DNA from: Bacteroidaceae bacterium
GTDB taxonomy: Bacteria; Bacteroidota; Bacteroidia; Bacteroidales; Bacteroidaceae
NCBI GenBank assembly: GCA_017622815.1
Contig: JAGAQH010000002.1
Coordinates: 110,083 to 174,082 of the forward strand
Length of the DNA stretch: 64,000 nucleotides
Direction: 5' to 3'
The notes beneath the pieces are model-generated. The model saw only the letters and a program-made list of their open reading frames with translations, was not told where the DNA came from and did no database searches. The translations under genes and the position numbers were made by a program. Shown one piece after another: positions 7,100 to 24,248 of the stretch. Numbering within the stretch: position 1 is the first letter of the stretch; every line of letters begins with the position of its first letter.

Positions 7100-8227
7100 C
7101 TATTCGTTTTCTGTTTCTGGGTTAGCCTCGTTATATTCCTCAATCCATTCCTTCACCTTCGACTGAAGCAGAGCCTTGTCGGGAAGATAGAGTTGGTATT
7201 GAGTAGCGTAGATATTTGCATCCTTTGGCAAAGTCAATTCTACAAGTGCATCGCTTTTCTCCTTGCAAAGCAGGATGCCAATGGTGGGATGCTCAAAATC
7301 TTCTTTGACATAGCGATCGTAATAGTTCACATACATTTGCATCTGTCCGAGATCCTGATGGGTGAGGTCATCAATCTTCAGATCAACGAGTACGTAGCAT
7401 TGAAGCAGTCGGTTGTATAGTACCAAATCCACATAGAAGTTTCGTTCCTCAAAGGTAAACCTCTTCTGACGTGCCTCAAACAAAAAACCTTTGCCCATCT
7501 CCAGCAAGAAATTCTGTAACTTGCTTATGATGGCGTTTTCCAGTTTGCTCTCGCTATACGCTGTGTCGGGCTTCAGCCCCAAAAATTCCAGTGTAACAGG
7601 ATCTTTGATGATGTCCTGCGGCTTCTCTATAGTCTGACCTTCGCGCGAAAGACGCATCACCTCATCTTTATCACGGCTTAAAGCCAACCGCTCATATAGG
7701 CTGCTGGCATGTTGACGTTTTAGCTGGCGTACGCTCCACTGCTCACGAGCGCACTCAATTTCATAGAAACTGCGCTCGTCGGGATTCTCTATGCGCATCA
7801 AAACCAGATAGTGTGACCAAGTAAGGACAAACTTCGGCTGTTGAATTTTGGCAACACTGTTGCTAAATTTCGTTTCGCCTTGACCTTCAATAGATTGTAA
7901 TTTTGGCAACGGTGTTGCCGAAATTGCTGGGTTGTTATAAGCAACGAAAAACTTTCTACACCTTGTAAGCGTATCAATAGTCCAATCATTACCATATTTT
8001 GCCATCAGACGCTGTGAAAGATTCTGCATGATGCGGGCTCCGTATGCAGCACGTCCTCCTTGTTGTTCATCTTCAAAAATGTAACGACCAACCTCAAATC
8101 GTGTCTTAACCTCAGTCACGTTTACGGTTCGGTAAACATGTTGACGAGCTTGTTCGATGAGATTTGCAATGCGCTCAAAGAGTGCGTCAATGCGTTCCGT
8201 TACTTGTATTTCGTTCTTCTGTGTCAT
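7100..8227 (-). CDS. PD-(D/E)XK nuclease-fold protein, DUF1016/YhcG family
   Basis: 375 residues. An N-terminal helical DUF1016 region (about 1-180; WSVRQLKRQ is typical) is followed by a restriction-endonuclease-like fold with FYVDLVLYNRLLQCYVLVDLK at about residue 260-285, where the D and the DLK provide the likely metal-binding residues (many relatives have ELK). Genes of this family often sit inside or beside type I R-M operons in Bacteroidetes; the exact role is unsettled. It lies between hsdM (42 bp) and hsdS (5 bp), so it is co-transcribed with them. It may be an accessory nuclease or a decoy-type partner; the former is only inference. Confidence 0.85.
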   Translation of the reverse strand: MTQKNEIQVTERIDALFERIANLIEQARQHVYRTVNVTEVKTRFEVGRYIFEDEQQGGRAAYGARIMQNLSQRLMAKYGNDWTIDTLTRCRKFFVAYNNPAISATPLPKLQSIEGQGETKFSNSVAKIQQPKFVLTWSHYLVLMRIENPDERSFYEIECAREQWSVRQLKRQHASSLYERLALSRDKDEVMRLSREGQTIEKPQDIIKDPVTLEFLGLKPDTAYSESKLENAIISKLQNFLLEMGKGFLFEARQKRFTFEERNFYVDLVLYNRLLQCYVLVDLKIDDLTHQDLGQMQMYVNYYDRYVKEDFEHPTIGILLCKEKSDALVELTLPKDANIYATQYQLYLPDKALLQSKVKEWIEEYNEANPETENE

Positions 8228-10873: not shown

Positions 10874-10910
10874 CAAAGATAGATTCCTATTGTGAAGTCT
10901 ATCTACACAG
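10874..10910 (-). promoter_or_regulatory. hsdM promoter with dyad operator
   Basis: Read on the minus strand, an operator-like dyad (10910-10890, core AGATAGACTTCACAA) is followed by exactly 8 nt and then the -7 box TATCTTTG (10881-10874). The same arrangement occurs at 39263-39299 (20 of 21 operator bases identical) and 12376-12412 (17 of 21). The operator covers the -33 region, as expected for repression, and overlaps the last codons of the WYL gene. Confidence 0.8.
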
Positions 10911-11919
10911 TTAAATATTTTTTTAGGTTCTCTTCAATTTTTTCCTTGATTTCCTGTCTTAACCATTCCGGAGAAAGCACTTCGACCTGTGGGCAGAATG
11001 AGAAGATGATTGATATCAATTCTTTATTAGGACGAACATCAATCTGGATTATATGTTCCTCATCACTTACAATCGTCTGGCTATGATGTATTGGCTTGGA
11101 AACGATGTATGGGTATCTGTCTTCATCGAACTTTAACTTCACATGTTCAATGTTTCCAGGTGCATCTGGTGTCGAAACGCCAACGATGTCATCAAATCTC
11201 GTAGAAAAATCCTCTATCGTGTTGGGGATAAACTCCACATCAGACAAGGATAGTTTTACTATTCTGTCCAATGGCCTATTTGCAATACGAGGAGATCCTG
11301 TGCTGGATTCCTCTAAGCCGAACAAGAACCATCTGTTGTTATATTCTCTAACGTGATAAGGATGGATGACAGAAGAGGTTTCTTTTCCTCTATAGGTTCT
11401 ATACTGTAGAAGTAGAGTCTTCTTGTTTATTGCAGCATCGATGATTGCTGACAGAAATTCAAGTCCCTTCAGCTTTTCATTCTGTTCAAAAACAACGATA
11501 TTCTCACGATTTGCCTTAACTCCAAATCGGAATTCAAGTTTCGAGATAACTTCTTCAAGCCAGACATTACCAGGAATACCCCGGTAGCGACTAAGCATAT
11601 CAATAGTAGAACGTAGTTCTGCAAGTTCCTGAACGCTCAATTCGTTGTTGAATATAGAATAACTAGGGTCATCATAGGTGTAATAGCATCTTCTTCCCTC
11701 AATAGGACGTGCCACAATCGGAGCATCATAAGATACACGGTCACGCATATACGTAATATCAGCACGTATTTGTCGAAGGCTGACTGTTTTGCCATACATG
11801 TCAAGCAAGGCTTCATTTACCTTATCGACGAGATCTTCAATCTCATAGCGGCGATGACGATCACTGAAACAGCGGTCTAGTATTTGGTATCGCAGTAGCG
11901 CATTCTTATTGATAGGCAT
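10903..11919 (-). CDS. WYL-domain transcriptional regulator
   Basis: 338 residues. An N-terminal winged helix (about 1-75, with DRHRRYEIEDLVDKVNEAL and RQIRADITYMRDRV) is followed by a WYL ligand-binding domain (about 140-220, containing RTYRGKETSSVIHPYHVREYNNRWFLFGLEE in shortened form) and a C-terminal extension. WYL regulators of this shape (for example BrxR and CapW) repress phage-defence operons and may respond to nucleotide signals. It is 21 bp downstream of an XRE gene and 62 bp upstream of hsdM, so it is the obvious candidate to bind the shared operator at 10890-10910. That assignment is inference. Confidence 0.85.
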   Translation of the reverse strand: MPINKNALLRYQILDRCFSDRHRRYEIEDLVDKVNEALLDMYGKTVSLRQIRADITYMRDRVSYDAPIVARPIEGRRCYYTYDDPSYSIFNNELSVQELAELRSTIDMLSRYRGIPGNVWLEEVISKLEFRFGVKANRENIVVFEQNEKLKGLEFLSAIIDAAINKKTLLLQYRTYRGKETSSVIHPYHVREYNNRWFLFGLEESSTGSPRIANRPLDRIVKLSLSDVEFIPNTIEDFSTRFDDIVGVSTPDAPGNIEHVKLKFDEDRYPYIVSKPIHHSQTIVSDEEHIIQIDVRPNKELISIIFSFCPQVEVLSPEWLRQEIKEKIEENLKKYLTV

Positions 11920-11940: not shown

Positions 11941-12171
11941 TTAATCTTGATTTTTAAGAATCGTAGAATCGTCCATGCGAACAAGGTCGCCGATATCACA
12001 TTTCAGTGCCTTAGCAATCTCTATCAAGCTTTCCAAAGTGGGCTGTGAGGTGTTAGTTACCCATCTGGATATTGTGGCAGTGTCCTTGTTAAGCATTTCG
12101 CTCAGGTCTTTATTTGATACCATTCGCTCTGCCATCACTACCTTAATTCGATTCAACGGTTTACTGTCCAT
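11941..12171 (-). CDS. XRE-family helix-turn-helix repressor
   Basis: 76 residues, almost entirely one Cro/CI-type helix-turn-helix (KDLSEMLNKDTATISRW with the turn and recognition helix at about 20-40, then PTLESLIEIAKAL). No second domain, so it probably acts as a small dimer. It is the first gene of a two-gene unit with the WYL regulator (21 bp gap) and is preceded by its own -7 box (12207-12200). It sits between the two divergent cargo operons and could regulate either or both. Confidence 0.85.
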   Translation of the reverse strand: MDSKPLNRIKVVMAERMVSNKDLSEMLNKDTATISRWVTNTSQPTLESLIEIAKALKCDIGDLVRMDDSTILKNQD

Positions 12172-12452: not shown

Positions 12453-12743
12453 ATGGCAACATTAAGAACTTACAGATGTGAATGTGGGTACGAAGTTAAA
12501 ACAGAACCCACAGGCCATTATGGACTTATGTCAGGAGAGTACTACAACTTTCGATGCTCAAAATGCAAGCAAGTAATCTCTATCTCGGCAGATGACCTCG
12601 CCAGTCAAAGGTATTTCCCCACATGTCCAGAATGTGGTGCAAAGAACGAAAAGATACACAACTGGAATCCCATCGAGGGACGCTGCCCCAAATGTGGCAA
12701 GGAAATGAAAGAAGTTCCAGGAATGATTATAATGGCAGATTAA
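12453..12743 (+). CDS. small zinc-ribbon protein
   Basis: 96 residues with cysteine pairs arranged as two zinc ribbons: CxC (about residues 9-11), CSKC (about 34-37), CPEC (about 55-58) and CPKC (about 74-77). No signal peptide, so it is cytoplasmic. Proteins of this type bind zinc and often serve as small nucleic-acid or protein adaptors; no specific family is recognised. First gene of a plus-strand operon with gaps of 13, 3, 26, 47 and 2 bp to and between the following genes. Its role in that operon is unknown. Confidence 0.75.
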   Translation: MATLRTYRCECGYEVKTEPTGHYGLMSGEYYNFRCSKCKQVISISADDLASQRYFPTCPECGAKNEKIHNWNPIEGRCPKCGKEMKEVPGMIIMAD

Positions 12744-12756
12744 AACCTTTACGAAT

Positions 12757-13239
12757 ATGAAAAAAGCGATATTTTTTCTTTTGTTGATTACGACAATTGG
12801 TGTCAACGCTCAAACCGCAAAGACAACCACCAGTGTAAAGTCTGTAAAGCATGAGCAAAAAGTAGATTCTCTTTTATCTCAAATCGATACACTCCTGATG
12901 ATAAACAATCAGTTGTTAGAACATTTGGAGATAAACTCGTCTCTGAAGGAACGCTATAAACTGTATCAGACAGAGAACATATATACTTTTCTTCAGTTGG
13001 ACACAAAGACTGGCATGATAGAACAAGTTCAGTGGTCTTTGGATTCCGATAATGAGGGAAGCGTTACTATCAACTCTGATGACTTGACCTATGGCTACGG
13101 CTATGGCTCAGGGTCTTTTGAGTTATATCCAACAAAAAACATGTACCAGTTCCTGCTCATCGATAAAACGAGCGGTAAGAAATGGCATGTGCAGTGGGGT
13201 ATGGAAAGTAGCAAACGTTGGATAAGAAGAATCTACTAA
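12757..13239 (+). CDS. secreted protein with two repeat units
   Basis: 160 residues with a clear signal peptide (MKKAIFFLLLITTIGVNAQ, cleavage after about residue 18). After a helical segment (about 30-68) there are two copies of one unit: ENIYTFLQLDTKTGMIEQVQW (about 73-93) and KNMYQFLLIDKTSGKKWHVQW (about 128-148), probably beta-strand pairs. A glycine/tyrosine-rich stretch (YGYGYGSGS) separates them. Not recognised as a named family. It is the only exported product of the operon, so it may act in the periplasm while the others act in the cytoplasm. Confidence 0.65.
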   Translation: MKKAIFFLLLITTIGVNAQTAKTTTSVKSVKHEQKVDSLLSQIDTLLMINNQLLEHLEINSSLKERYKLYQTENIYTFLQLDTKTGMIEQVQWSLDSDNEGSVTINSDDLTYGYGYGSGSFELYPTKNMYQFLLIDKTSGKKWHVQWGMESSKRWIRRIY

Positions 13240-13242
13240 TCA

Positions 13243-13764
13243 ATGAAAACCTATCTTGAAATAAAAGTTCCCATATCCTACGATGCATCATGGTTTGCTG
13301 AACTTAGAAAGGCATTAAAAGATATACCTGTGCATTGGCAAAATGGTTACTACCATATCACTATGGCTTTCTTGGACGAGACGAGAAATCTGCCAGAGGT
13401 AGAAGCCATCATGCACAAGTATTTGGATAATGCCAATGCTGTTTCTATCACTTTCGATAAGCTGGATGTGTTCTCTACCTGGAGCAGTTTGTTGATTGTT
13501 CACTTGAAAGCGACTCGCATACCAGAGGCATTTCAATCTTTGGTGAAAGATATTCGGAACGAGATTGTTTTAACTAACTCCATTATCCAGTCTGACTTTC
13601 GGCTACATGTTACGTTGGGACGCATATCCAATCCAGTAGCTGATATAAAAGACATAGGATTTCTTATTGACGAAATAGATTTCTCTCCTTTGACACTTAC
13701 ACTTAATGAGGTAGAGTATCGAGAGTTCAGAGGAAAAAGCATATACAGTAATACGCTCAAATAG
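13243..13764 (+). CDS. 2H phosphoesterase (LigT / cyclic phosphodiesterase type)
   Basis: 173 residues with the two defining motifs of the 2H superfamily: HITMAF at about residue 39 and HVTLGR at about residue 121. These histidines hydrolyse or ligate 2',3'-cyclic or 1'',2''-cyclic phosphates. The family includes RNA 2',3'-CPDases and the enzymes that open ADP-ribose 1'',2''-cyclic phosphate. The start is 3 bp after the previous stop. The gene is immediately before a macrodomain-like/ADP-ribosylglycohydrolase fusion, which makes an ADP-ribose-derived substrate plausible; that link is inference. Confidence 0.8.
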   Translation: MKTYLEIKVPISYDASWFAELRKALKDIPVHWQNGYYHITMAFLDETRNLPEVEAIMHKYLDNANAVSITFDKLDVFSTWSSLLIVHLKATRIPEAFQSLVKDIRNEIVLTNSIIQSDFRLHVTLGRISNPVADIKDIGFLIDEIDFSPLTLTLNEVEYREFRGKSIYSNTLK

Positions 13765-13790
13765 TAGGATGCAATATAGCGATTAAAAGC

Positions 13791-15413
13791 ATGAGTAAGA
13801 ATAGAACATTAAATCCAAACATAGCATCTGGCAGAATAGATGTTCTTGACAAAGATGAAATCTTCGTCTTTGGCAGTAACCTTGCAGGACAGCATAAGGG
13901 AGGCGCAGCAAGAGCTGCAAACATGAAGTTTGGAGCCGAATGGGGCGTTGGCGTTGGATTGACAGGTCAAGCTTATGCCATACCAACCATGCAAGGAGGC
14001 GTTGACACCATAAGACCATACGTTGACGAGTTCATTGAGTTTGCAAAAGCTCACACCGACTTAAAATTCCTGGTTACGCGGATCGGTTGCGGCATAGCAG
14101 GATTTAAGGACGAAGAAATTGCCCCTCTTTTCACAAAGGCCATGTCTGTCAATAACATATTCCTCCCGAAGGAGTTTTATGACATCATCGCTGCACCATA
14201 CTTGGCTCATTGCTTCTATTATGGAAAGAATGTGCCAGAAGATTGTGGCGCACACGTTGGACATATGTATGAAGAGTATTGGGTTAGATTCCATTTCGAT
14301 GAATCAGACTATCTCATGACAGAGACCATTAACTTCATTAAAGAGGGACTGGGCAATTTCTGTGCGGATGATGGTGTACCTGTATCCATGAAAGCCCTTC
14401 TATATAATCGCTTTTGTCATTGGGGATGGTATGAAACGCCGGACACATTCAGAAGTTGGTACGAAAGTATCGGCTATACAAATGTGACAAAGAAACAGGA
14501 CACATTACTGAAAAATCCCAAAAACAAATTCAATCCTTTGCTAATGGGAGCTGTCCTTGGAGATATTGTCGGCAGCATCTATGAGTTCAATCCACGCAAG
14601 TCAACAGACATAGATCTTCAGGACAAAAGAATGGACTATACCGATGATACCATCATGACTATTGCTGTTGCTGACTGGATTCTTAACGATAAGAAACACA
14701 CAAAGAAAGGACTGGTCACTCGAATGCAAGAATGGGGACGAAAATATCCCAACCCAATGGGAGCCTATGGTGGAATGTTCTCGCAATGGCTGACTTCTAA
14801 GAACCCAAAGCCATATAACTCTTGGGGAAATGGAGCTGCCATGAGGGTGGCCGCTGTTGGCTTTGCCTTCTCCACTTTGGAGGAAACATTAGAGGTTGCT
14901 AAGAAAAGTGCGGAAGTTACGCATAACCATCCTGAAGGTATCAAGGGGGCGCAAGCTACAGCTGCAGCTATCTTTATGGCAAGAACAGGTTGCTCCAAAG
15001 AGGATATTCGCCGCTACATAAGTGAAAACTTCGGCTATGACCTAAACAGGACTTGTGATGACATTCGCCCGAATTATAGTTTCGACGGCAGCTGTCAGGG
15101 TACTGTGCCGGAATCCATCATTGCTTTCCTTGACAGCAAGGATTACGAGGATGCTTTGCGACTTTGTATCTCACTGGGGGGTGATGCTGATACTATGGGG
15201 GCCATAACAGGTGCAATAGCAGGAGCATATTACGGCACAATGCCTTATGCCTTGCATGTATTTGGCATGGCCAAATTACCTGACGACATTAAAGATGTGA
15301 TTAGCAAATTCGACTATAATCATGGCCGGATGGTATCGTGTTACTGGCGGCCACCAGAATACAATGCCGAAGAACATATTCGGAAAGTTCAATCAGGTGA
15401 AATTTTCATATAA
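13791..15413 (+). CDS. macrodomain-like / ADP-ribosylglycohydrolase fusion
   Basis: 540 residues. The N-terminus (about 15-130) looks like a macrodomain relative of the A1S_2505 type: EIFVFGSNLAGQHKGGAARAA and, later, LVTRIGCGIAGFKDEEIAPLF. A linker domain (about 135-245) with no recognised family follows. The C-terminus (about 253-520) is an ADP-ribosylglycohydrolase (DraG/ARH) with GAVLGDIVGS, the metal ligands in YTDDT (about 285) and GDADTMGAITG (about 464). Both modules normally bind or cleave ADP-ribose, so the protein probably removes or processes ADP-ribose from protein, nucleic acid or a metabolite. No partner ADP-ribosyltransferase is visible nearby. Confidence 0.88.
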   Translation: MSKNRTLNPNIASGRIDVLDKDEIFVFGSNLAGQHKGGAARAANMKFGAEWGVGVGLTGQAYAIPTMQGGVDTIRPYVDEFIEFAKAHTDLKFLVTRIGCGIAGFKDEEIAPLFTKAMSVNNIFLPKEFYDIIAAPYLAHCFYYGKNVPEDCGAHVGHMYEEYWVRFHFDESDYLMTETINFIKEGLGNFCADDGVPVSMKALLYNRFCHWGWYETPDTFRSWYESIGYTNVTKKQDTLLKNPKNKFNPLLMGAVLGDIVGSIYEFNPRKSTDIDLQDKRMDYTDDTIMTIAVADWILNDKKHTKKGLVTRMQEWGRKYPNPMGAYGGMFSQWLTSKNPKPYNSWGNGAAMRVAAVGFAFSTLEETLEVAKKSAEVTHNHPEGIKGAQATAAAIFMARTGCSKEDIRRYISENFGYDLNRTCDDIRPNYSFDGSCQGTVPESIIAFLDSKDYEDALRLCISLGGDADTMGAITGAIAGAYYGTMPYALHVFGMAKLPDDIKDVISKFDYNHGRMVSCYWRPPEYNAEEHIRKVQSGEIFI

Positions 15414-15460
15414 GGTCGCTTAAACTGACCTGTAGGAACATATAAATCTGAAATCGATAA

Positions 15461-16081
15461 ATGAAGACAGCGGTACTCATAGGACTAAGCAGACATCGGA
15501 TAGGTGTGGATGGCTCAGGAGTAACGACTCTTGTTGCTTTCCACGGTTGTCCGCTTAACTGCAAGTACTGTCTTAATCCACAAGCACTGTCACCAGAAGG
15601 TGTATGGAAACGTTTTACTCCAGAAGAACTGTTTAGAGCTGTGAGCAAGGACGATCTCTATTTCAGAGCTACAGGAGGCGGAATTACCTTTGGTGGTGGC
15701 GAACCTCTATTGTCAGGCATAGAGATTCTACAATTTCATTCTATCTGCTTGCACAAAGACAAAAAGTGGAAGATCAATATCGAAACTTCACTGAATATGC
15801 CACAATTATATGTTGAGATGCTGAAAGATGTAGTTGACCACTGGATAATTGACATTAAGGATATGAATCCACATATCTACAAGGCATATACAGGGAAGGA
15901 CAACAAACAAGTCATCAGCAACCTTCAATACCTAATAGACAATAATGCCAAGATTACTGCTCGGGTGCCGCTAATCACAGGCTTTAATACTGAGCTTGAT
16001 GTAAAAAATAGCATCTTATCCCTTGAAAGAATGGGCATTATAGATATAGATAGATTTTCTTACACCGTCAAGAAACATTAG
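15461..16081 (+). CDS. short radical SAM protein, activase-like
   Basis: 206 residues. The CxxxCxxC cluster motif is GCPLNCKYC (C30, C34, C37), followed by the SAM-binding GGGEPLL stretch (about 82-88). The pattern resembles the glycyl-radical-enzyme activases (PflA-type), but it is shorter than PflA (about 246) and has no extra ferredoxin insert. No glycyl radical enzyme is nearby. Its stop is 2 bp before the next gene, whose N-terminus is a Cys-rich domain, so that domain is a plausible partner or substrate. This is inference from gene order. Confidence 0.85.
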   Translation: MKTAVLIGLSRHRIGVDGSGVTTLVAFHGCPLNCKYCLNPQALSPEGVWKRFTPEELFRAVSKDDLYFRATGGGITFGGGEPLLSGIEILQFHSICLHKDKKWKINIETSLNMPQLYVEMLKDVVDHWIIDIKDMNPHIYKAYTGKDNKQVISNLQYLIDNNAKITARVPLITGFNTELDVKNSILSLERMGIIDIDRFSYTVKKH

Positions 16082-16083
16082 AT

Positions 16084-17529
16084 ATGGAAAAAGGAAAAAG
16101 AATATGCGAGGCACTGAAAGCATTACGTAAGCGTATTGCAGATGCCAACGACATTCCGTTTGAAATGGAAGAATGTTCGCACGAAGGAGATTGCCCAGGC
16201 ACATGTCCCAAATGCGAATCTGAACTGCGCTATCTGATGGAAGCTATAGACAAAAGAGAACAGGAAGGAAAACCTGTTGTCTTGGATGGAATTATGAGTG
16301 ATGAAGAACTGCGTAAGGCATTCTCCATCATCCCAGCAGAACAGGACATGATTGATAACACAGAGGAAATGGAAACAATGGGGTTGCCTGAACGACCTGA
16401 GCCAATGACTCTGATGGGAGATCCCGAACCACCCCTTGAAGGAGACCTCATGACATACCCAAACTTTAGTTTTGCCTCTACCATCTCCAGAGTGTTGATG
16501 CTGAAGAATCACAGCAATTTTGTCTTTTCCCCAGCAGGACTTTGTTCCATCCTTGAAATCCTTCAACAAGGAATGGATATACATAGTAGCATCTATAAAC
16601 AAATAGATAAGTTAATATCAGGATTTAATAGTGAAGTGAAGTCGGACGATGATGAAGACTTCAATTTAGCACACGCCATAGGTGTCTGGTATGACAATAA
16701 CTTAGGAGCAGTGAAAGAGGAATTTCTCGAATACATTCAGGATGTGTACGAGGCTGAAGCTCATAACGCAGACTTTTCACAGACAACCAAAACGAAGTTA
16801 TGGATTGACAAGTGGGTTGCTGATAAAACGCACCACATGATTGAATCCCTTGACACAGAAATAGACAAGGATTCGCTAATGATTTTGCTGGATGCCATAT
16901 ATATGAAAGCCAAATGGGAAGAACCATTTGATTCCAGCCTGACCGATACCGATATATTCCATAATGCTGATGGCACGGAATCGGAAGTTGACATGATGTA
17001 TCAAAACATTGAAGATGCAGAATATGCCGAGACAGAAGAGTATCAGGTGATTACCCTGCCATATAAATCATATAAATACAGTATGGTCTTGGTTCTTCCA
17101 AAAGAAGGGGTTGATATTAACGACATGATGAGCAATCCAGACTGGTTGGATGAAGCTTCAGATACAAGAGACGTGGAATTGTATATGCCACGTTTCAAGT
17201 TTGACAACACGCTGTCTTTTAAGGAAATCCTGACCGTGTTGGGTCTGGAAGACTTGTTTGAAAAAGAAGATTCGTTACCTAATATAACCGACTTGCCAGC
17301 TCATATCAGTGAAATCAAGCAACAGTGCGTAATAGCCGTTGAAGAAGAAGGGACGGAAGCCGCAGCTGTTACAATGGAAGTTTGCGTGGCGGGTTGCCCA
17401 CCCCCAGATGATATTCCCGAACCAATTACGATGAAGATTGACCGACAGTTCGGTTTCGCTATCAGAGGTGATTTCAGCCAACTCTTATTTATGGGCATTG
17501 TAAAAAACATGAGTAAGGATCAATCATAG
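16084..17529 (+). CDS. cytoplasmic serpin with Cys-rich N-terminal domain
   Basis: 481 residues without a signal peptide. Residues about 1-58 form a small domain with CSHEGDCPGTCPKCESELRY, where four cysteines and a histidine could bind metal or a cluster; an acidic linker follows. A complete serpin fold spans about 125-478. The reactive-centre hinge EEEGTEAAAVT (about 420-430) has the small residues required for insertion, so it should be inhibitory. The scissile region that follows is VCVAGCPPP, with two cysteines near the P4 to P1' positions. Last gene of the operon, 2 bp after the radical SAM gene. The target protease is unknown. Confidence 0.88.
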   Translation: MEKGKRICEALKALRKRIADANDIPFEMEECSHEGDCPGTCPKCESELRYLMEAIDKREQEGKPVVLDGIMSDEELRKAFSIIPAEQDMIDNTEEMETMGLPERPEPMTLMGDPEPPLEGDLMTYPNFSFASTISRVLMLKNHSNFVFSPAGLCSILEILQQGMDIHSSIYKQIDKLISGFNSEVKSDDDEDFNLAHAIGVWYDNNLGAVKEEFLEYIQDVYEAEAHNADFSQTTKTKLWIDKWVADKTHHMIESLDTEIDKDSLMILLDAIYMKAKWEEPFDSSLTDTDIFHNADGTESEVDMMYQNIEDAEYAETEEYQVITLPYKSYKYSMVLVLPKEGVDINDMMSNPDWLDEASDTRDVELYMPRFKFDNTLSFKEILTVLGLEDLFEKEDSLPNITDLPAHISEIKQQCVIAVEEEGTEAAAVTMEVCVAGCPPPDDIPEPITMKIDRQFGFAIRGDFSQLLFMGIVKNMSKDQS

Positions 17530-18726: not shown

Positions 18727-20922
18727 TTAGCGTACTTTGAATTTGTTTATCTCATCGATCATATTCTTCACATCGAGGTTGACGGAAACGAAGTTCTGGT
18801 ACAGAATACGTTCCTTGGCATCAACGGAAGGGAAAGAATAAAACTTAGGAATCTTGTAGTTCTCGTAATCCGCTTCTTCCTTCTGGATTTCCTTCATGTC
18901 AAAGTCTGTCTTGCAGTAGAACTTTGAAGTCTGGAACTCCGCACTCTCCTGGATGTTCATAGAGTCACCGCGCCCCGTCTTGGTCTTGATGAAGTCACGT
19001 GCTGACTGACCGCATATCCAACCTGTCGGCATGTCTGAAATCTTGGATGCCGGCACAAGACTGTCCATATTCTCATTGAGGTTGATGGAGGTCTTGTCAC
19101 GGTCGATGGTCACACCTTTCTTTAACTGAACAACCTTTCCGAAGATGTCATTTGAGAGCCATTCCAGCGTTTCTTTGGCTCTGGCAGAACCACTGACCAC
19201 GTTACCAACAGTCGTGATGACCTTCTGCATACCAACTTTGCCGTAGTCGCTTTCCAACTGGGGAAGTTCCTGAAAGCCGAGAGCCACACTTACCTTGTTG
19301 CTTCGCGCAGTACCTATAAGACGGTCAATCTTGTGGAAATACAGGGTTGGCAACTCATCGACGATGATGCTGACAGGGATGTTCTTGCCCTGCCCAGTAT
19401 TGACACGAGTGACAAGACGGTTCAAGATCAGGGCGTTCAAGGCTCCGATAATGCTCTCCATCTCTGGGTCATTGGCAATCAGCAGATAACTGGGATTGGC
19501 AGGGTCTGACACCTTCAAGTCAAAGTCGTCGCCGTCCTTATGGAATATCCAGTAGGATTCCTTGGTGGCAAGACGTGAGGTATAAACGCGCAGCGTACCT
19601 ATCATACCTTCCAACTGCTCCATGGCCTTGTTCTTCATGGCGGTCTGGAACGGCCCAAGTAGAGGGGCAACCTCTGGGTCGGTTTCCAAAACCTCGAAGA
19701 TGGTCTGGTAGTCAAGATTGAGGAAGGACAGAATATGTGGCATGTCGCTGTACTTACCAAGCCAGTAATAGCTGTCAGGGCTGACCTCATTGTGGTTTGC
19801 ATCAAAGACACGTCCAGTCGGCTTCGGGCGATGGGTCTTCGGCTCTTCGGTCATCTCTGCCTCCAATGGATTGTTCGTCTTCTTGTCATACGGCACCTTG
19901 CGGTAATTGCAGAAGAAGAAAATACAAGCAGCAAGGAAGTTCACGGCTGAAGTCTGGAAGAACTGGTCTGAACCGCCACCACCTTCTTTCTTACCCTTCT
20001 GGAGTGATTCAAGCAAGGTCTCTGCCGTCTCACTGGCAGCGGCAAGGTTGGGAATGTACTTCAGCTGGATAGGATTGACACGTCGGCTGTATTCCACATC
20101 CACGAAGTTGATGATATTGAACTTGCATCCCTTGGGTACTTTGCCAGCGGCGAGGTTCTTGCGGTAGTGATAGTAGAGTTTGGTGGCCAGTGTCGGAAAC
20201 TTGTAGTCATAGACAACCATAGCAAAGCCCTTGGCACTATGCTGTCGGATAAATGGCTCAATGATGGAGAAGGTCTTACCAGAACCAGGAGTGCCGACCA
20301 CCCATGTACCTCGGAAAGGATTGACGATGTTCACCCATCCCTTGCGGAACTTCGACTTGTAGTAGTAGCGCATGGGGATGTTCACGCTATACTTATTCTC
20401 AATCAGTTCCTCACATTGCTGGAAGGACTCGTTCTCGAAGTTGAAGCGGTCTTTGAGCAGCCCTTCCTTCAGGAACTTGCTGATGTTGTCGAGGGCAACA
20501 TGGATGAGTATCGTTCCAAGGATGGAGGCAGCCATATAAAGCCAGATATTGAGGGCTATCGTATAGAAGCGCGTGTCCATACGGGTCTTGAAGAGCCAGA
20601 TGGAAACGAGCGTCACGAAAAAGCCACCGACTAATGGGTAGAGTACCTGACGACGAGCATCAAACTCGATGTGTTTCTTGTTTCTGGTGCCAATACAGGT
20701 GACAAAGATACAGAGGATAGTGGTGAGCTTGCTCCATACGAGATTACCATCATGATAGATAAACCACCGCTTCATGCGGTCATGGACATCGCAGACAATG
20801 CCTCCCCAGTAGTCAAGCAACTCTGGGTCTATGGCATACTCGAAGAACTCAACTACCAGCGAGACGTAGATGAGTGTTCGGAATATCTTATAGACGGTCT
20901 GAAGTTCTTTGGTTTCTTCCAT
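18727..20922 (-). CDS. type IV coupling protein (MobC/TraD-like ATPase)
   Basis: 731 residues. Several N-terminal membrane segments (about 15-35, 65-80, 90-110, 125-150) precede the cytoplasmic motor. Walker A is GTPGSGKT (about 233) and Walker B is IIVDELPT (about 532). Such proteins carry the relaxase-DNA complex to the conjugation channel. Start at 20922; 25 bp after the upstream lipoprotein gene. In CTnDOT-like elements this gene is usually next to the relaxase genes, but here a lysozyme and cargo follow and no relaxase is seen. Confidence 0.9.
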   Translation of the reverse strand: MEETKELQTVYKIFRTLIYVSLVVEFFEYAIDPELLDYWGGIVCDVHDRMKRWFIYHDGNLVWSKLTTILCIFVTCIGTRNKKHIEFDARRQVLYPLVGGFFVTLVSIWLFKTRMDTRFYTIALNIWLYMAASILGTILIHVALDNISKFLKEGLLKDRFNFENESFQQCEELIENKYSVNIPMRYYYKSKFRKGWVNIVNPFRGTWVVGTPGSGKTFSIIEPFIRQHSAKGFAMVVYDYKFPTLATKLYYHYRKNLAAGKVPKGCKFNIINFVDVEYSRRVNPIQLKYIPNLAAASETAETLLESLQKGKKEGGGGSDQFFQTSAVNFLAACIFFFCNYRKVPYDKKTNNPLEAEMTEEPKTHRPKPTGRVFDANHNEVSPDSYYWLGKYSDMPHILSFLNLDYQTIFEVLETDPEVAPLLGPFQTAMKNKAMEQLEGMIGTLRVYTSRLATKESYWIFHKDGDDFDLKVSDPANPSYLLIANDPEMESIIGALNALILNRLVTRVNTGQGKNIPVSIIVDELPTLYFHKIDRLIGTARSNKVSVALGFQELPQLESDYGKVGMQKVITTVGNVVSGSARAKETLEWLSNDIFGKVVQLKKGVTIDRDKTSINLNENMDSLVPASKISDMPTGWICGQSARDFIKTKTGRGDSMNIQESAEFQTSKFYCKTDFDMKEIQKEEADYENYKIPKFYSFPSVDAKERILYQNFVSVNLDVKNMIDEINKFKVR

Positions 20923-23009: not shown

Positions 23010-24248
23010 TTATTTGTTCTTTGTCTCTTTGCCATTGATCAGATATACGAAGGTGCCGTATTTCAGCTTGGCAGAGTTCTTCTTGATGGACTTGCCAATG
23101 GCGTTACTGGTCTTCTGGACGATATTACTGATAGCCTGGTTGCCCCATTGTGTGAGGGCATTGCCTCCAGAGGTGTTTCCGCTTGTGAGCGTCGAGGTAT
23201 TGCTCATGGCCCCTGACGCTACATCCTTGCTGGTCTCTCTGAAGCTGCTGCTCGGAACATAGAGTCCTTCCAGTCCGTCGGTATCATAGAGGGAGAGGTT
23301 GACTTTGATAAGCTCGTCATGAATCAGGATGCTCTTGACCGTTCCTTTGACTCGCTGTGAGCCGAAGCCACTCATCTGGGCATAGAGGTAAGTACCCTTG
23401 GGGACAACCACCTCATTGATTTCGATGTCATCGAGAAGACGGAGGCGCACCCGGCTTCCATCAACGGCTTTAACGTTCTCGTCAATGATGGCCTTGATAA
23501 GATTTGGCTCTTGGTCAGCGTTGGCAATGGTGTTGAAATAGTCAGATGTGGTCTTGACCTTCTTCACAACCTCCTGCGCCTCGTCATCGTCACTCACGCC
23601 TTTGACCACACGCTCATTGATGGTAAGCTGTCCTTCTGCCTTCGTAGGCTGACTGGCTACGGAATCACTGTTTGCGTTGTCAGTTGCATTGGCAGTGGGG
23701 GACTGCATGGCTTGCTGTCCTTGCAGTCGGGCTTGGGCTAACACACGGTTGAGTTCGTCCATCGCCTCGCGTTCACGCTGCTGGCTGCGTGCCAGGCGGT
23801 CTTCTTCTGACAGGACACTGCCACCTTCGACTTCCTGGCCTTTTTGTGCGCTTTCCTGTAGTTGTCTCTGTAGCTCAGCGAGTTTCTGGGCTTCTTCAGA
23901 TTCAAGCTGCTCACGTTCTGTATCGCTGTACTTTGAATCATATTCTTCTTTTTCTTCATCGTTGTTTCTGTCTATGTTATTCAATGCTGTATAATCGTCG
24001 ATACGACCGTATGATTTGAGCATACTTTCGTATTTGTTTCCGATACCATCTCCCTTCATCTTGGCATCAGGGAGGTCGGGATTCAGGTACTCCGTCGTAG
24101 CCATGCTGGAGTCTGGAATCTCTGCCTTCTCTGTGTGGAAAAGGTCGATGACGAAATACCCGACGAAGAGCAAAGGAACATAGATGATGAGAGGCAGCAT
24201 ATATTTAGGCTGCTTCCAGTTAATCTTCTTTAGTGTCTGAAAGTCCAT
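23010..24248 (-). CDS. traM: conjugative transposon protein TraM (VirB10-like)
   Basis: 412 residues. One membrane segment near the N-terminus (about 16-38, YMLPLIIYVPLLFVGYFVIDLF), then a long charged/glutamine-rich coiled region (about 85-190) spanning the periplasm, then a compact C-terminal domain (about 230-400) of the TraM/VirB10 type (VRLRLLDDIEINEVVVPKGT). It should connect inner and outer membranes and gate the channel. Its first 29 bp overlap the preceding gene. Confidence 0.88.
   Translation of the reverse strand: MDFQTLKKINWKQPKYMLPLIIYVPLLFVGYFVIDLFHTEKAEIPDSSMATTEYLNPDLPDAKMKGDGIGNKYESMLKSYGRIDDYTALNNIDRNNDEEKEEYDSKYSDTEREQLESEEAQKLAELQRQLQESAQKGQEVEGGSVLSEEDRLARSQQREREAMDELNRVLAQARLQGQQAMQSPTANATDNANSDSVASQPTKAEGQLTINERVVKGVSDDDEAQEVVKKVKTTSDYFNTIANADQEPNLIKAIIDENVKAVDGSRVRLRLLDDIEINEVVVPKGTYLYAQMSGFGSQRVKGTVKSILIHDELIKVNLSLYDTDGLEGLYVPSSSFRETSKDVASGAMSNTSTLTSGNTSGGNALTQWGNQAISNIVQKTSNAIGKSIKKNSAKLKYGTFVYLINGKETKNK

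What the first reader, a model, noticed from the sequence alone, without database searches (positions are those of the whole stretch)
12453..17529. Six-gene operon: 2H phosphoesterase, macro/ADP-ribosylglycohydrolase fusion, radical SAM and cytoplasmic serpin
Seen: six same-strand genes with gaps of 13, 3, 26, 47 and 2 bp, encoding a zinc ribbon, a secreted repeat protein, a 2H phosphoesterase (HITMAF/HVTLGR), a macrodomain-like plus ARH fusion, a CxxxCxxC radical SAM protein and a serpin. Known: in eukaryotes 2H and macrodomain enzymes act in sequence on ADP-ribose 1'',2''-cyclic phosphate, and macro/ARH enzymes reverse ADP-ribosylation. Inference: the operon processes an ADP-ribose product, perhaps as defence, counter-defence or toxin reversal; serpin and radical SAM roles are open. 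I know of no described system with this set.
Basis: partly seen in the sequence, partly recalled or inferred. Interest (0 to 1): 0.87.

Follow-up and report, generated by a model that had tools for sequence, protein, structure and literature searches.

The report
Radical-SAM enzyme with swappable tagged proteins
Part of this gene row is an undescribed-looking two-part module, a radical enzyme plus a small cysteine-rich tag attached to quite different proteins (here a protease inhibitor), and in mobile elements it tends to sit beside genes that remove ADP-ribose, which suggests a protein-modifying system used in microbial conflict.

Summary
The six genes and gaps are as described, in a conjugative element beside a type I restriction system. 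The set is not conserved: of 251 family genomes only one other (G091) shows the core (A1S_2505-ARH fusion, radical SAM, serpin). Tag and short PFL-activase-like radical SAM enzyme are partners: all 30 enzyme genomes of 251 carry the tag, 29 side by side, and one ORF fuses them. The tag carries swapped cargo: mostly signal-peptide/TonB-type proteins, else HIRAN, serpin, ARH. A linker motif LxG[DE][VIP] recurs between tag and cargo. Cytosolic versions lie near ADP-ribose hydrolases (ARH, NADAR, PARG) more often than secreted ones, though the queries came from cytosolic loci. Six secreted loci have a serpin gene directly upstream, a second serpin link. Best reading: the enzyme recognises the tag and modifies the tagged protein, probably at the linker glycine; the mobile form belongs to ADP-ribose conflict cassettes resembling the ARG-centric systems of Iyer et al. 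2022.

The parts
12453..12743 (+). gene 1, 96-aa zinc-ribbon protein; variable neighbour
   Evidence: not found in L055
12757..13239 (+). gene 2, 160-aa protein with signal peptide and two YxTxNxYxFLxLDxxTG-like repeats (by eye); variable neighbour
   Evidence: no family above cut-off
13243..13764 (+). gene 3, 2H (LigT-like) phosphoesterase, both HxT motifs; variable neighbour
13791..15413 (+). gene 4, 540 aa: A1S_2505 domain (residues 24-129), middle domain (about 145-245), ADP-ribosylglycohydrolase (251-482) with TDDT and GGDADT
   Evidence: A1S_2505+middle+NADAR relative in L223; full length listed only in G000 and G091 of 251
15461..16081 (+). gene 5, 206-aa radical SAM enzyme of PFL-activase type; CxxxCxxC are the only invariant cysteines
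16084..16299 (+). GTCP tag domain, residues 1-72 of gene 6, five invariant Cys (8, 31, 37, 41, 44)
   Evidence: no Pfam or NCBIfam match, PDB best E 0.17
16411..16446 (+). linker motif LMGDPEPP followed by LEGD, residues 110-121 of gene 6
16468..17508 (+). serpin domain (residues 129-475), no signal peptide seen, inhibitory-type hinge EEGTEAAAVT, reactive loop CVAGCPPP
10903..11919 (-). WYL/WCX regulator, divergent from the operon; may serve the restriction system or the operon
11941..12171 (-). 76-aa Cro/CI-type HTH protein beside the WYL gene

Best explanation
Genes 5 and 6 are an enzyme-substrate pair of a family so far seen in the window's own bacterial family, in MAGs labelled Prevotellaceae and other Bacteroidales, and in a few viral contigs. 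The radical SAM enzyme recognises the N-terminal GTCP tag of its neighbour and makes a radical-based change in the same protein, most likely at the glycine of the linker motif LxG[DE][VIP]..P; the cargo behind the linker is exchangeable (secreted TonB-type proteins in most loci; HIRAN, serpin or ARH in the cytosolic form). In mobile elements the pair travels with ADP-ribose hydrolases. The window operon is one such conflict cassette: gene 4 removes ADP-ribose put on host or element molecules, and the modified cytosolic serpin traps a protease active in the same conflict. Shown: co-occurrence, adjacency, fusions, linker motif, hydrolase neighbours. Inferred: the modification, its site, the serpin's target and the defence role.
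For: Same 251 genomes: tag in 32, radical SAM in 30, both in 30 (Fisher p 8e-37); adjacent in 29 of 30 (G178 has them on two contigs). 52 of 79 named loci have the enzyme in the fetched stretch, 51 of these within 134 nt of a tag gene. One ORF fuses enzyme and tag (L226); another fuses tag and ARH (L284); the enzyme of L225 and L277 carries a stretch like gene 4's middle domain (L225 E 3e-6, L277 pairwise 8e-9, about 30% identity). Tag: five invariant Cys in 66 sequences. Linker motif: 7 of 8 cytosolic linkers, 0.49 expected, 0 of 2000 shuffles; then 5 of 5 enzyme-linked linkers fetched after the pattern was fixed, 0.22 expected, 0 of 5000. The closest solved relative, PFL-AE 3c8f, acts on a glycine (recalled). 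ADP-ribose genes within 3 kb: 5 of 19 cytosolic vs 1 of 101 secreted, p 3e-4. Serpin link a second time: six secreted-type loci (L061, L071, L079, L080, L096, L099) have a membrane-type serpin gene 44-261 nt upstream of the tag genes; Serpin and TonB_C tie as commonest Pfam family, 6 of 139 nearest neighbours each. No third gene is shared by most loci: best family in 13 of 116.
Against: 27 of 79 named loci have no enzyme in the stretch, several with 7-kb flanks, so some tags lack a local enzyme or use one elsewhere (as in G178). Three loci with the enzyme have no linker motif (L226, L227, L239); with-enzyme vs without-enzyme is 12 of 15 vs 1 of 4, p 0.07, not significant. Related linkers share descent, so shuffles overstate. 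Window and L055 linkers were in both, and the eight linkers had been seen. NADAR and PARG queries were taken from cytosolic loci; a Pfam scan of 139 nearest neighbours of secreted loci showed no ADP-ribose family among the 25 of 178 families listed, but families with a single member are not listed, so it is only a partial control. Among 59 neighbours of 18 cytosolic loci NADAR had 2 members. A1S_2505 genes also lie 3.4-5 kb from secreted-type pairs L037/L081 and from L226. Only two tag-serpins were found. ARH or A1S_2505 matches are common (170 of 251 genomes). The six serpin-neighbour loci look like one lineage. No structure, mass or phenotype data.
Confidence: 0.6

Rival explanations
1. The tag is not the substrate but a zinc or iron-sulphur adaptor: it feeds electrons or positions the enzyme, whose real substrate is a small molecule or another protein, and the cargo is a localisation or sensing part.
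For: Five invariant Cys look like a metal site; the enzyme-tag fusion L226 has no cargo or motif and L227 is a tag alone of 85 aa.
Against: The five enzyme-linked linkers tested all have the motif, which an adaptor would not need; up to seven tag proteins cluster in one locus (L121), as expected of substrates.
Confidence: 0.25
2. The neighbourhood is cargo accretion: a conjugative element picked up unrelated genes (2H, ARH fusion, radical SAM/tag pair), with no joint function between gene 4 and genes 5-6.
For: Only 3 of 6 genes recur; ARH and A1S_2505 genes are frequent in the family; two genes separate gene 4 from the pair in L055; the unbiased Pfam control is only partial.
Against: Different hydrolase families lie beside cytosolic pairs (ARH, NADAR, PARG); fusions join tag to ARH and enzyme to a stretch like gene 4's middle domain.
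Confidence: 0.3
3. Classical glycyl radical system: the enzyme is an activase of a glycyl radical enzyme elsewhere in the genome and the tag proteins are regulators.
For: Best family matches are glycyl-radical activases, TIGR02494 in 27 of 27 members.
Against: The window enzyme scores below every curated cut-off shown; no third gene is shared by most loci; presence tracks the tag.
Confidence: 0.08
4. One reading: 2H and macro-ARH act in sequence on ADP-ribose 1'',2''-cyclic phosphate.
For: Both enzymes have intact motifs.
Against: 2H was not found in L055 or in any of 137 loci scanned; gene 4 has no Pfam macrodomain.
Confidence: 0.05

Closest known systems
ARG-centric systems predicted to counter viral ADP-ribosylation (Iyer et al. 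2022, PMC9503650; passages and the whole of section 3.8 read)
   Same: ADP-ribosylglycohydrolase without a linked ADP-ribosyltransferase seen; WYL regulator (window) or Nudix/NrtR regulator (L055); accessory NADAR in relatives; nuclease genes near; variable add-ons.
   Different: No listed phosphatase or chaperone found; a radical SAM enzyme and tagged cargo instead. The words radical, serpin, zinc ribbon and Bacteroid do not occur in its main text.
Glycyl radical enzyme activases (PFL-AE, TIGR02494)
   Same: Homology over the core and CxxxCxxC.
   Different: Mostly about 205-230 aa, window member below the curated cut-offs, no glycyl radical enzyme among common neighbours; partner is a tag protein.
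Radical SAM RiPP systems (general knowledge; PMC10352776 by passages)
   Same: Shared N-terminal stretch in substrates, repeated short motif, dedicated radical SAM enzyme next door.
   Different: Substrates are proteins up to 481 aa with folded cargo; no auxiliary-cluster cysteines among invariant residues.
rSAM/lipoprotein system of Bacteroidetes (TIGR04133/TIGR04134, names recalled)
   Same: Radical SAM gene beside a lipoprotein gene.
   Different: No TIGR04134 match among 30 tag proteins at E<=0.01; TIGR04133 not among the 25 of 38 families shown for 27 enzymes.
Bacterial serpins of Bacteroidales
   Same: Serpin fold and inhibitory-type hinge.
   Different: By eye 5 of the 8 untagged serpins printed start with a clear lipoprotein or secretion signal; this one is cytosolic and tagged, with CxxGCPPP in the reactive loop.

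Membership tests
ARG-centric counter-ADP-ribosylation system | ADP-ribosylglycohydrolase domain | tested here: met
   PF03747 149.9 bits, TDDT and GGDADT
ARG-centric counter-ADP-ribosylation system | WYL or Nudix transcription factor (over 42% of systems by the paper) | tested here: inconclusive
   WYL gene beside the window operon but also directly upstream of hsdM; NrtR-type Nudix in L055
ARG-centric counter-ADP-ribosylation system | no linked ADP-ribosyltransferase or sirtuin | tested here: inconclusive
   none among the genes scanned; not every window ORF was scanned
ARG-centric counter-ADP-ribosylation system | linked phosphatase (a little over 55% by the paper) | tested here: not met
   no phosphatase family in genes 1-6 or in the L055 genes scanned
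Glycyl radical enzyme activase | CxxxCxxC and homology to PFL-AE | tested here: met
   3c8f E 4e-24; C30, C34, C37 invariant in 27
Glycyl radical enzyme activase | curated score cut-off TIGR02494 | tested here: not met
   133.1 vs 174.35 bits for the window enzyme
Glycyl radical enzyme activase | glycyl radical enzyme as partner | tested here: inconclusive
   no third gene shared by most loci; an unlinked one was not searched for
Radical SAM RiPP | common leader in substrates next to the enzyme | tested here: met
Radical SAM RiPP | short precursor peptide cut to a small product | tested here: not met
   85-481 aa proteins, many with folded cargo domains
Radical SAM RiPP | enzyme-dependent modification | not testable with these tools
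   needs mass spectrometry
Macrodomain (PF01661) | Pfam macrodomain match | tested here: not met
   no hit at E<=1; A1S_2505 family met instead; fold not tested
Inhibitory serpin | serpin fold with small-residue hinge | tested here: met
   242.7 bits; EEGTEAAAVT
Inhibitory serpin | covalent protease inhibition | not testable with these tools
   needs an assay
2H phosphoesterase | two HxT motifs and family score | tested here: met
   HITMAF, HVTLGR; PF02834 42.2 vs 23.3 bits
ThpR RNA 2',3'-cyclic phosphodiesterase (TIGR02258) | equivalog cut-off | tested here: not met
   38.7 vs 65.7 bits

The most novel reading that the evidence does not exclude
A portable protein-modification code: one small radical SAM enzyme places a glycyl-type radical or another radical-made change on the linker glycine of any protein that bears the GTCP tag. 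In these anaerobes such a site would be an oxygen-labile fuse (PFL's glycyl radical is known, from recall, to be cut by oxygen), freeing or arming the cargo (lipoprotein, DNA-end binder, ARH or serpin) on oxidative or phage stress. In the window serpin the reactive loop itself (V-A-G-C-P-P-P; E-V-G-C-P-P-P in G091) resembles the motif, so the enzyme might arm the trap directly.
Probability: 0.15. Interest if true: 0.92.

Novelty: new variant of a known kind. Interest (0 to 1): 0.72.

Why it matters
It gives a testable function to an unannotated domain that a profile finds in 51 of 399 genomes of the window's family (some weak), and would be radical SAM chemistry aimed at a set of otherwise unrelated proteins through a common tag. 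It also ties that chemistry to ADP-ribose removal and to serpins in mobile elements, testable with two genes.

Tried and rejected
Six-gene co-occurrence: not found beyond three genes. Distant blastn on plasmids: two short matches, one leading to the radical SAM beside two TonB-annotated tag genes on a Segatella copri plasmid. Tag-serpin in viral contigs: none (pattern search for close relatives); plasmids: 85 records with serpin matches, 30 shown, widest 83% of the query at 22% identity, none annotated or read as a tag-serpin. Tag-HIRAN query in phage records: no match. Solved structure for the A1S_2505 part (phmmer): best E 0.16. PADLOC: gene 5 has a weak viperin match, E 6e-5. Motif vs enzyme presence: p 0.07, not claimed. 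Phylum-wide search for the tag (A1, E<=1e-6): 2 of 296, both in the own family. Ten paper searches with radical SAM, TonB, serpin, HIRAN, NADAR, leader and glycyl radical terms listed nothing that by title or start of abstract describes this pair; PMC9503650, PMC7641849 and PMC10352776 were looked into by passages, section 3.8 of the first was read whole, the others only as listings. The library lacks most subscription papers.

Counting choices: the first motif count (38 of 48 tails or linkers, both serpin linkers among them) used a pattern chosen after looking. One search's eight linkers had been seen when its stricter pattern was set. One search tested five of the eight newly fetched cytosolic-looking loci, chosen as those with an enzyme; the other three (L282, L284 without enzyme, L287 a cut contig) gave no hit in the linkers cut for them; the newly fetched secreted-type loci were not tested. 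In one search duplicates were dropped (120 loci kept), L287 counted as cytosolic, L284 sorted as secreted; with L284 moved, the counts are 6 of 20 vs 0 of 100, p 1e-5, and with weak ARH-like and middle-domain genes 9 of 20 vs 0 of 100, p 2e-8 (Fisher, computed on L287 as cytosolic). The window, where the idea arose, is one of the cytosolic loci. In one search the one motif hit without an enzyme lies in the ARH part of L284. The control scan took 139 of 164 nearest neighbours, from 85 of 100 secreted loci, because of the size limit; neighbours over 800 aa were left out. Loci were not freed of duplicates.

Full report
Setting. The operon lies on contig C17 of a 2.57 Mb genome in 42 contigs; relatives are Prevotella-like Bacteroidales. 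Downstream on the other strand are conjugation genes (MobC-like 18727-20922, below the curated cut-off; TraM 23010-24248); upstream are a type I restriction set (HsdR, HsdS, a YhcG-type PDDEXK protein, HsdM) and a WYL and an HTH regulator. So the genes are cargo of an integrative conjugative element (inference from these genes).

The operon. Gene 4 is an A1S_2505 phage-family domain, a middle domain and an ADP-ribosylglycohydrolase with both metal motifs (the motifs' role is recalled). Gene 3 is a 2H phosphoesterase. Gene 5 is a 206-residue radical SAM protein closest to glycyl radical activases but below every curated cut-off shown. The serpin domain of gene 6 starts only at residue 129.

The missed domain. 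A search of 251 genomes of the family with the whole serpin returned, besides serpins and one true relative (G091, 60% identical), many non-serpin proteins that match about residues 1-72 only. This stretch, with consensus GKxICxxLKxIRxxIAxANxIxYxPxECxHxGDCxGTCPxCExE, has five invariant cysteines in 66 sequences. It matches no Pfam or NCBIfam family, no PADLOC family convincingly, and nothing in the PDB below E 0.17. I call it the GTCP tag.

Tag and enzyme are partners. In the same 251 genomes the tag profile hits 32 and the enzyme profile 30; all 30 enzyme genomes have the tag (Fisher p 8e-37), and in 29 of the 30 the two lie side by side. The two tag-only genomes are telling: in G008 a 53-residue remnant of the enzyme lies beside the tag gene (L223), and in G247 the tag is degenerate (L228). 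In G229 one 307-residue ORF holds enzyme and tag together (L226). Among 79 named loci 52 have the enzyme in the stretch; 27 do not, some with full flanks. No third gene is shared by most loci: the commonest neighbour family occurs in 13 of 116 loci and looks TonB-like itself.

Cargo. Of 30 tag proteins scanned, 11 have TonB_C, 6 CarbopepD_reg_2, 1 serpin. In 159 of 164 the tag is followed by a hydrophobic stretch, with lipobox-like (114 of 165) or signal-peptidase-I-like ends (50 of 165) by loose patterns; the tag then looks like a long cytosolic n-region of an export signal. A smaller group is cytosolic: HIRAN proteins (PF08797 tested and found in L138, L222 and L282; others by likeness), the two serpins, an ARH (L284), tag-only or unassigned proteins; three near-identical viral contigs carry tag-HIRAN (L138-L140) and one a 141-residue tag protein (L141). 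In viral contig L239 the tag sits at the C-terminus.

Linker motif. Short tails and linkers carry LEGDV..P-like motifs (38 of 48; shuffles mean 11.2, maximum 21 in 500; pattern chosen after looking). The stricter pattern [VILM]xG[DE][VIP] occurs in 7 of 8 cytosolic linkers (0.49 expected, 0 of 2000 shuffles) and in 5 of 5 enzyme-linked linkers fetched later (0.22 expected, 0 of 5000). In the window it reads LMGDPEPP-LEGD, in the G091 serpin LMGDIAAP with a near match LQGMPAPP. Loci without an intact enzyme mostly lack it, but 12 of 15 vs 1 of 4 is not significant (p 0.07). Because the enzyme resembles PFL activase, which abstracts hydrogen from a glycine (recalled), the linker glycine is my first guess for the site. 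No extra invariant cysteines for auxiliary clusters are seen, which speaks against thioether chemistry of the SPASM type.

ADP-ribose link. Near cytosolic pairs lie the A1S_2505-ARH fusion (window, L055), A1S_2505-NADAR with the same middle domain (L223), NADAR alone touching the enzyme gene (L222, L241), microbial PARG (L239), weak ARH-like genes (L276, L278; PF03747 E 3e-4 but below cut-off in L278, no hit in L276), and a stretch like gene 4's middle domain fused to the enzyme (L225, L277). By script, ARH/NADAR/PARG within 3 kb: 5 of 19 cytosolic vs 1 of 101 secreted loci, p 3e-4; with the weak genes 8 of 19 vs 1 of 101, p 7e-7. The NADAR and PARG queries came from cytosolic loci. As a partial control, Pfam on 139 nearest neighbours of secreted loci listed no ADP-ribose family among its 25 commonest (of 178; singletons unseen), while 59 neighbours of 18 cytosolic loci gave NADAR and McrBC twice each. 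A1S_2505 genes lie 3.4-5 kb from the pairs in L037/L081 and L226.

Serpin. The hinge EEGTEAAAVT is of the inhibitory kind; counted along conserpin the scissile pair would be G-C in CVAGCPPP, and CxxGCPPP is seen only in the two tagged serpins among the 11 reactive loops printed. No signal peptide or membrane stretch is seen, so it should act in the cytosol (inference). Independently, six secreted-type loci have an untagged serpin gene with an N-terminal membrane stretch (by eye; L099 is cut at its start) directly upstream of the tag genes, 44-261 nt away; they look like one lineage. So serpins meet this module in two ways.

How it may work. Enzyme binds tag; radical change on linker; cargo matured or armed. 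In the element, gene 4 reverses ADP-ribosylation while the serpin blocks a protease of the same conflict. Iyer et al. 2022 (section 3.8 read) predict ARG-centric systems with WYL or Nudix regulators against viral ADP-ribosylation; the window (WYL) and L055 (Nudix) resemble these in regulators and hydrolase, but lack the listed phosphatases and chaperones and add the radical SAM/tag module. The enzyme tree (FastTree, 92 sequences) puts window and L055 together (support 0.96), with the L226 fusion next (0.91), apart from the HIRAN clade (1.00).

Limits. No structure prediction, no assay. Related loci are not independent samples.

Noticed in passing
L223:7262-8893: 543-aa A1S_2505 + middle + NADAR protein: the same front end as gene 4 with a different ADP-ribose hydrolase behind it.
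   Followed up: partly
L061:3998-5674, L071:5271-6932, L079:4302-6044, L080:2617-4377, L096:4731-6176, L099:19-1101: Untagged serpin genes directly upstream of secreted-type tag genes and the radical SAM gene, same strand.
   Followed up: partly
L119, L121, L122: Arrays of six to seven tag proteins in one locus without the enzyme in the fetched stretch.
   Followed up: no
L047 and L233 (G178): Four tag genes on one contig and the only enzyme gene found on another: possible action in trans.
   Followed up: no
L036:5065-8255: Prevotella plasmid pE2-28 with a Sir2-family gene near an A1S_2505-type ORF, a vWA gene between them.
   Followed up: no
L055:10312-11355 and 14456-15193: PAD_porph deiminase between the ARH fusion and the enzyme, and an NrtR-type Nudix regulator upstream of the ARH fusion.
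   Followed up: partly
window 7100-8227: YhcG-type PDDEXK nuclease between hsdS and hsdM of the type I system.
   Followed up: no
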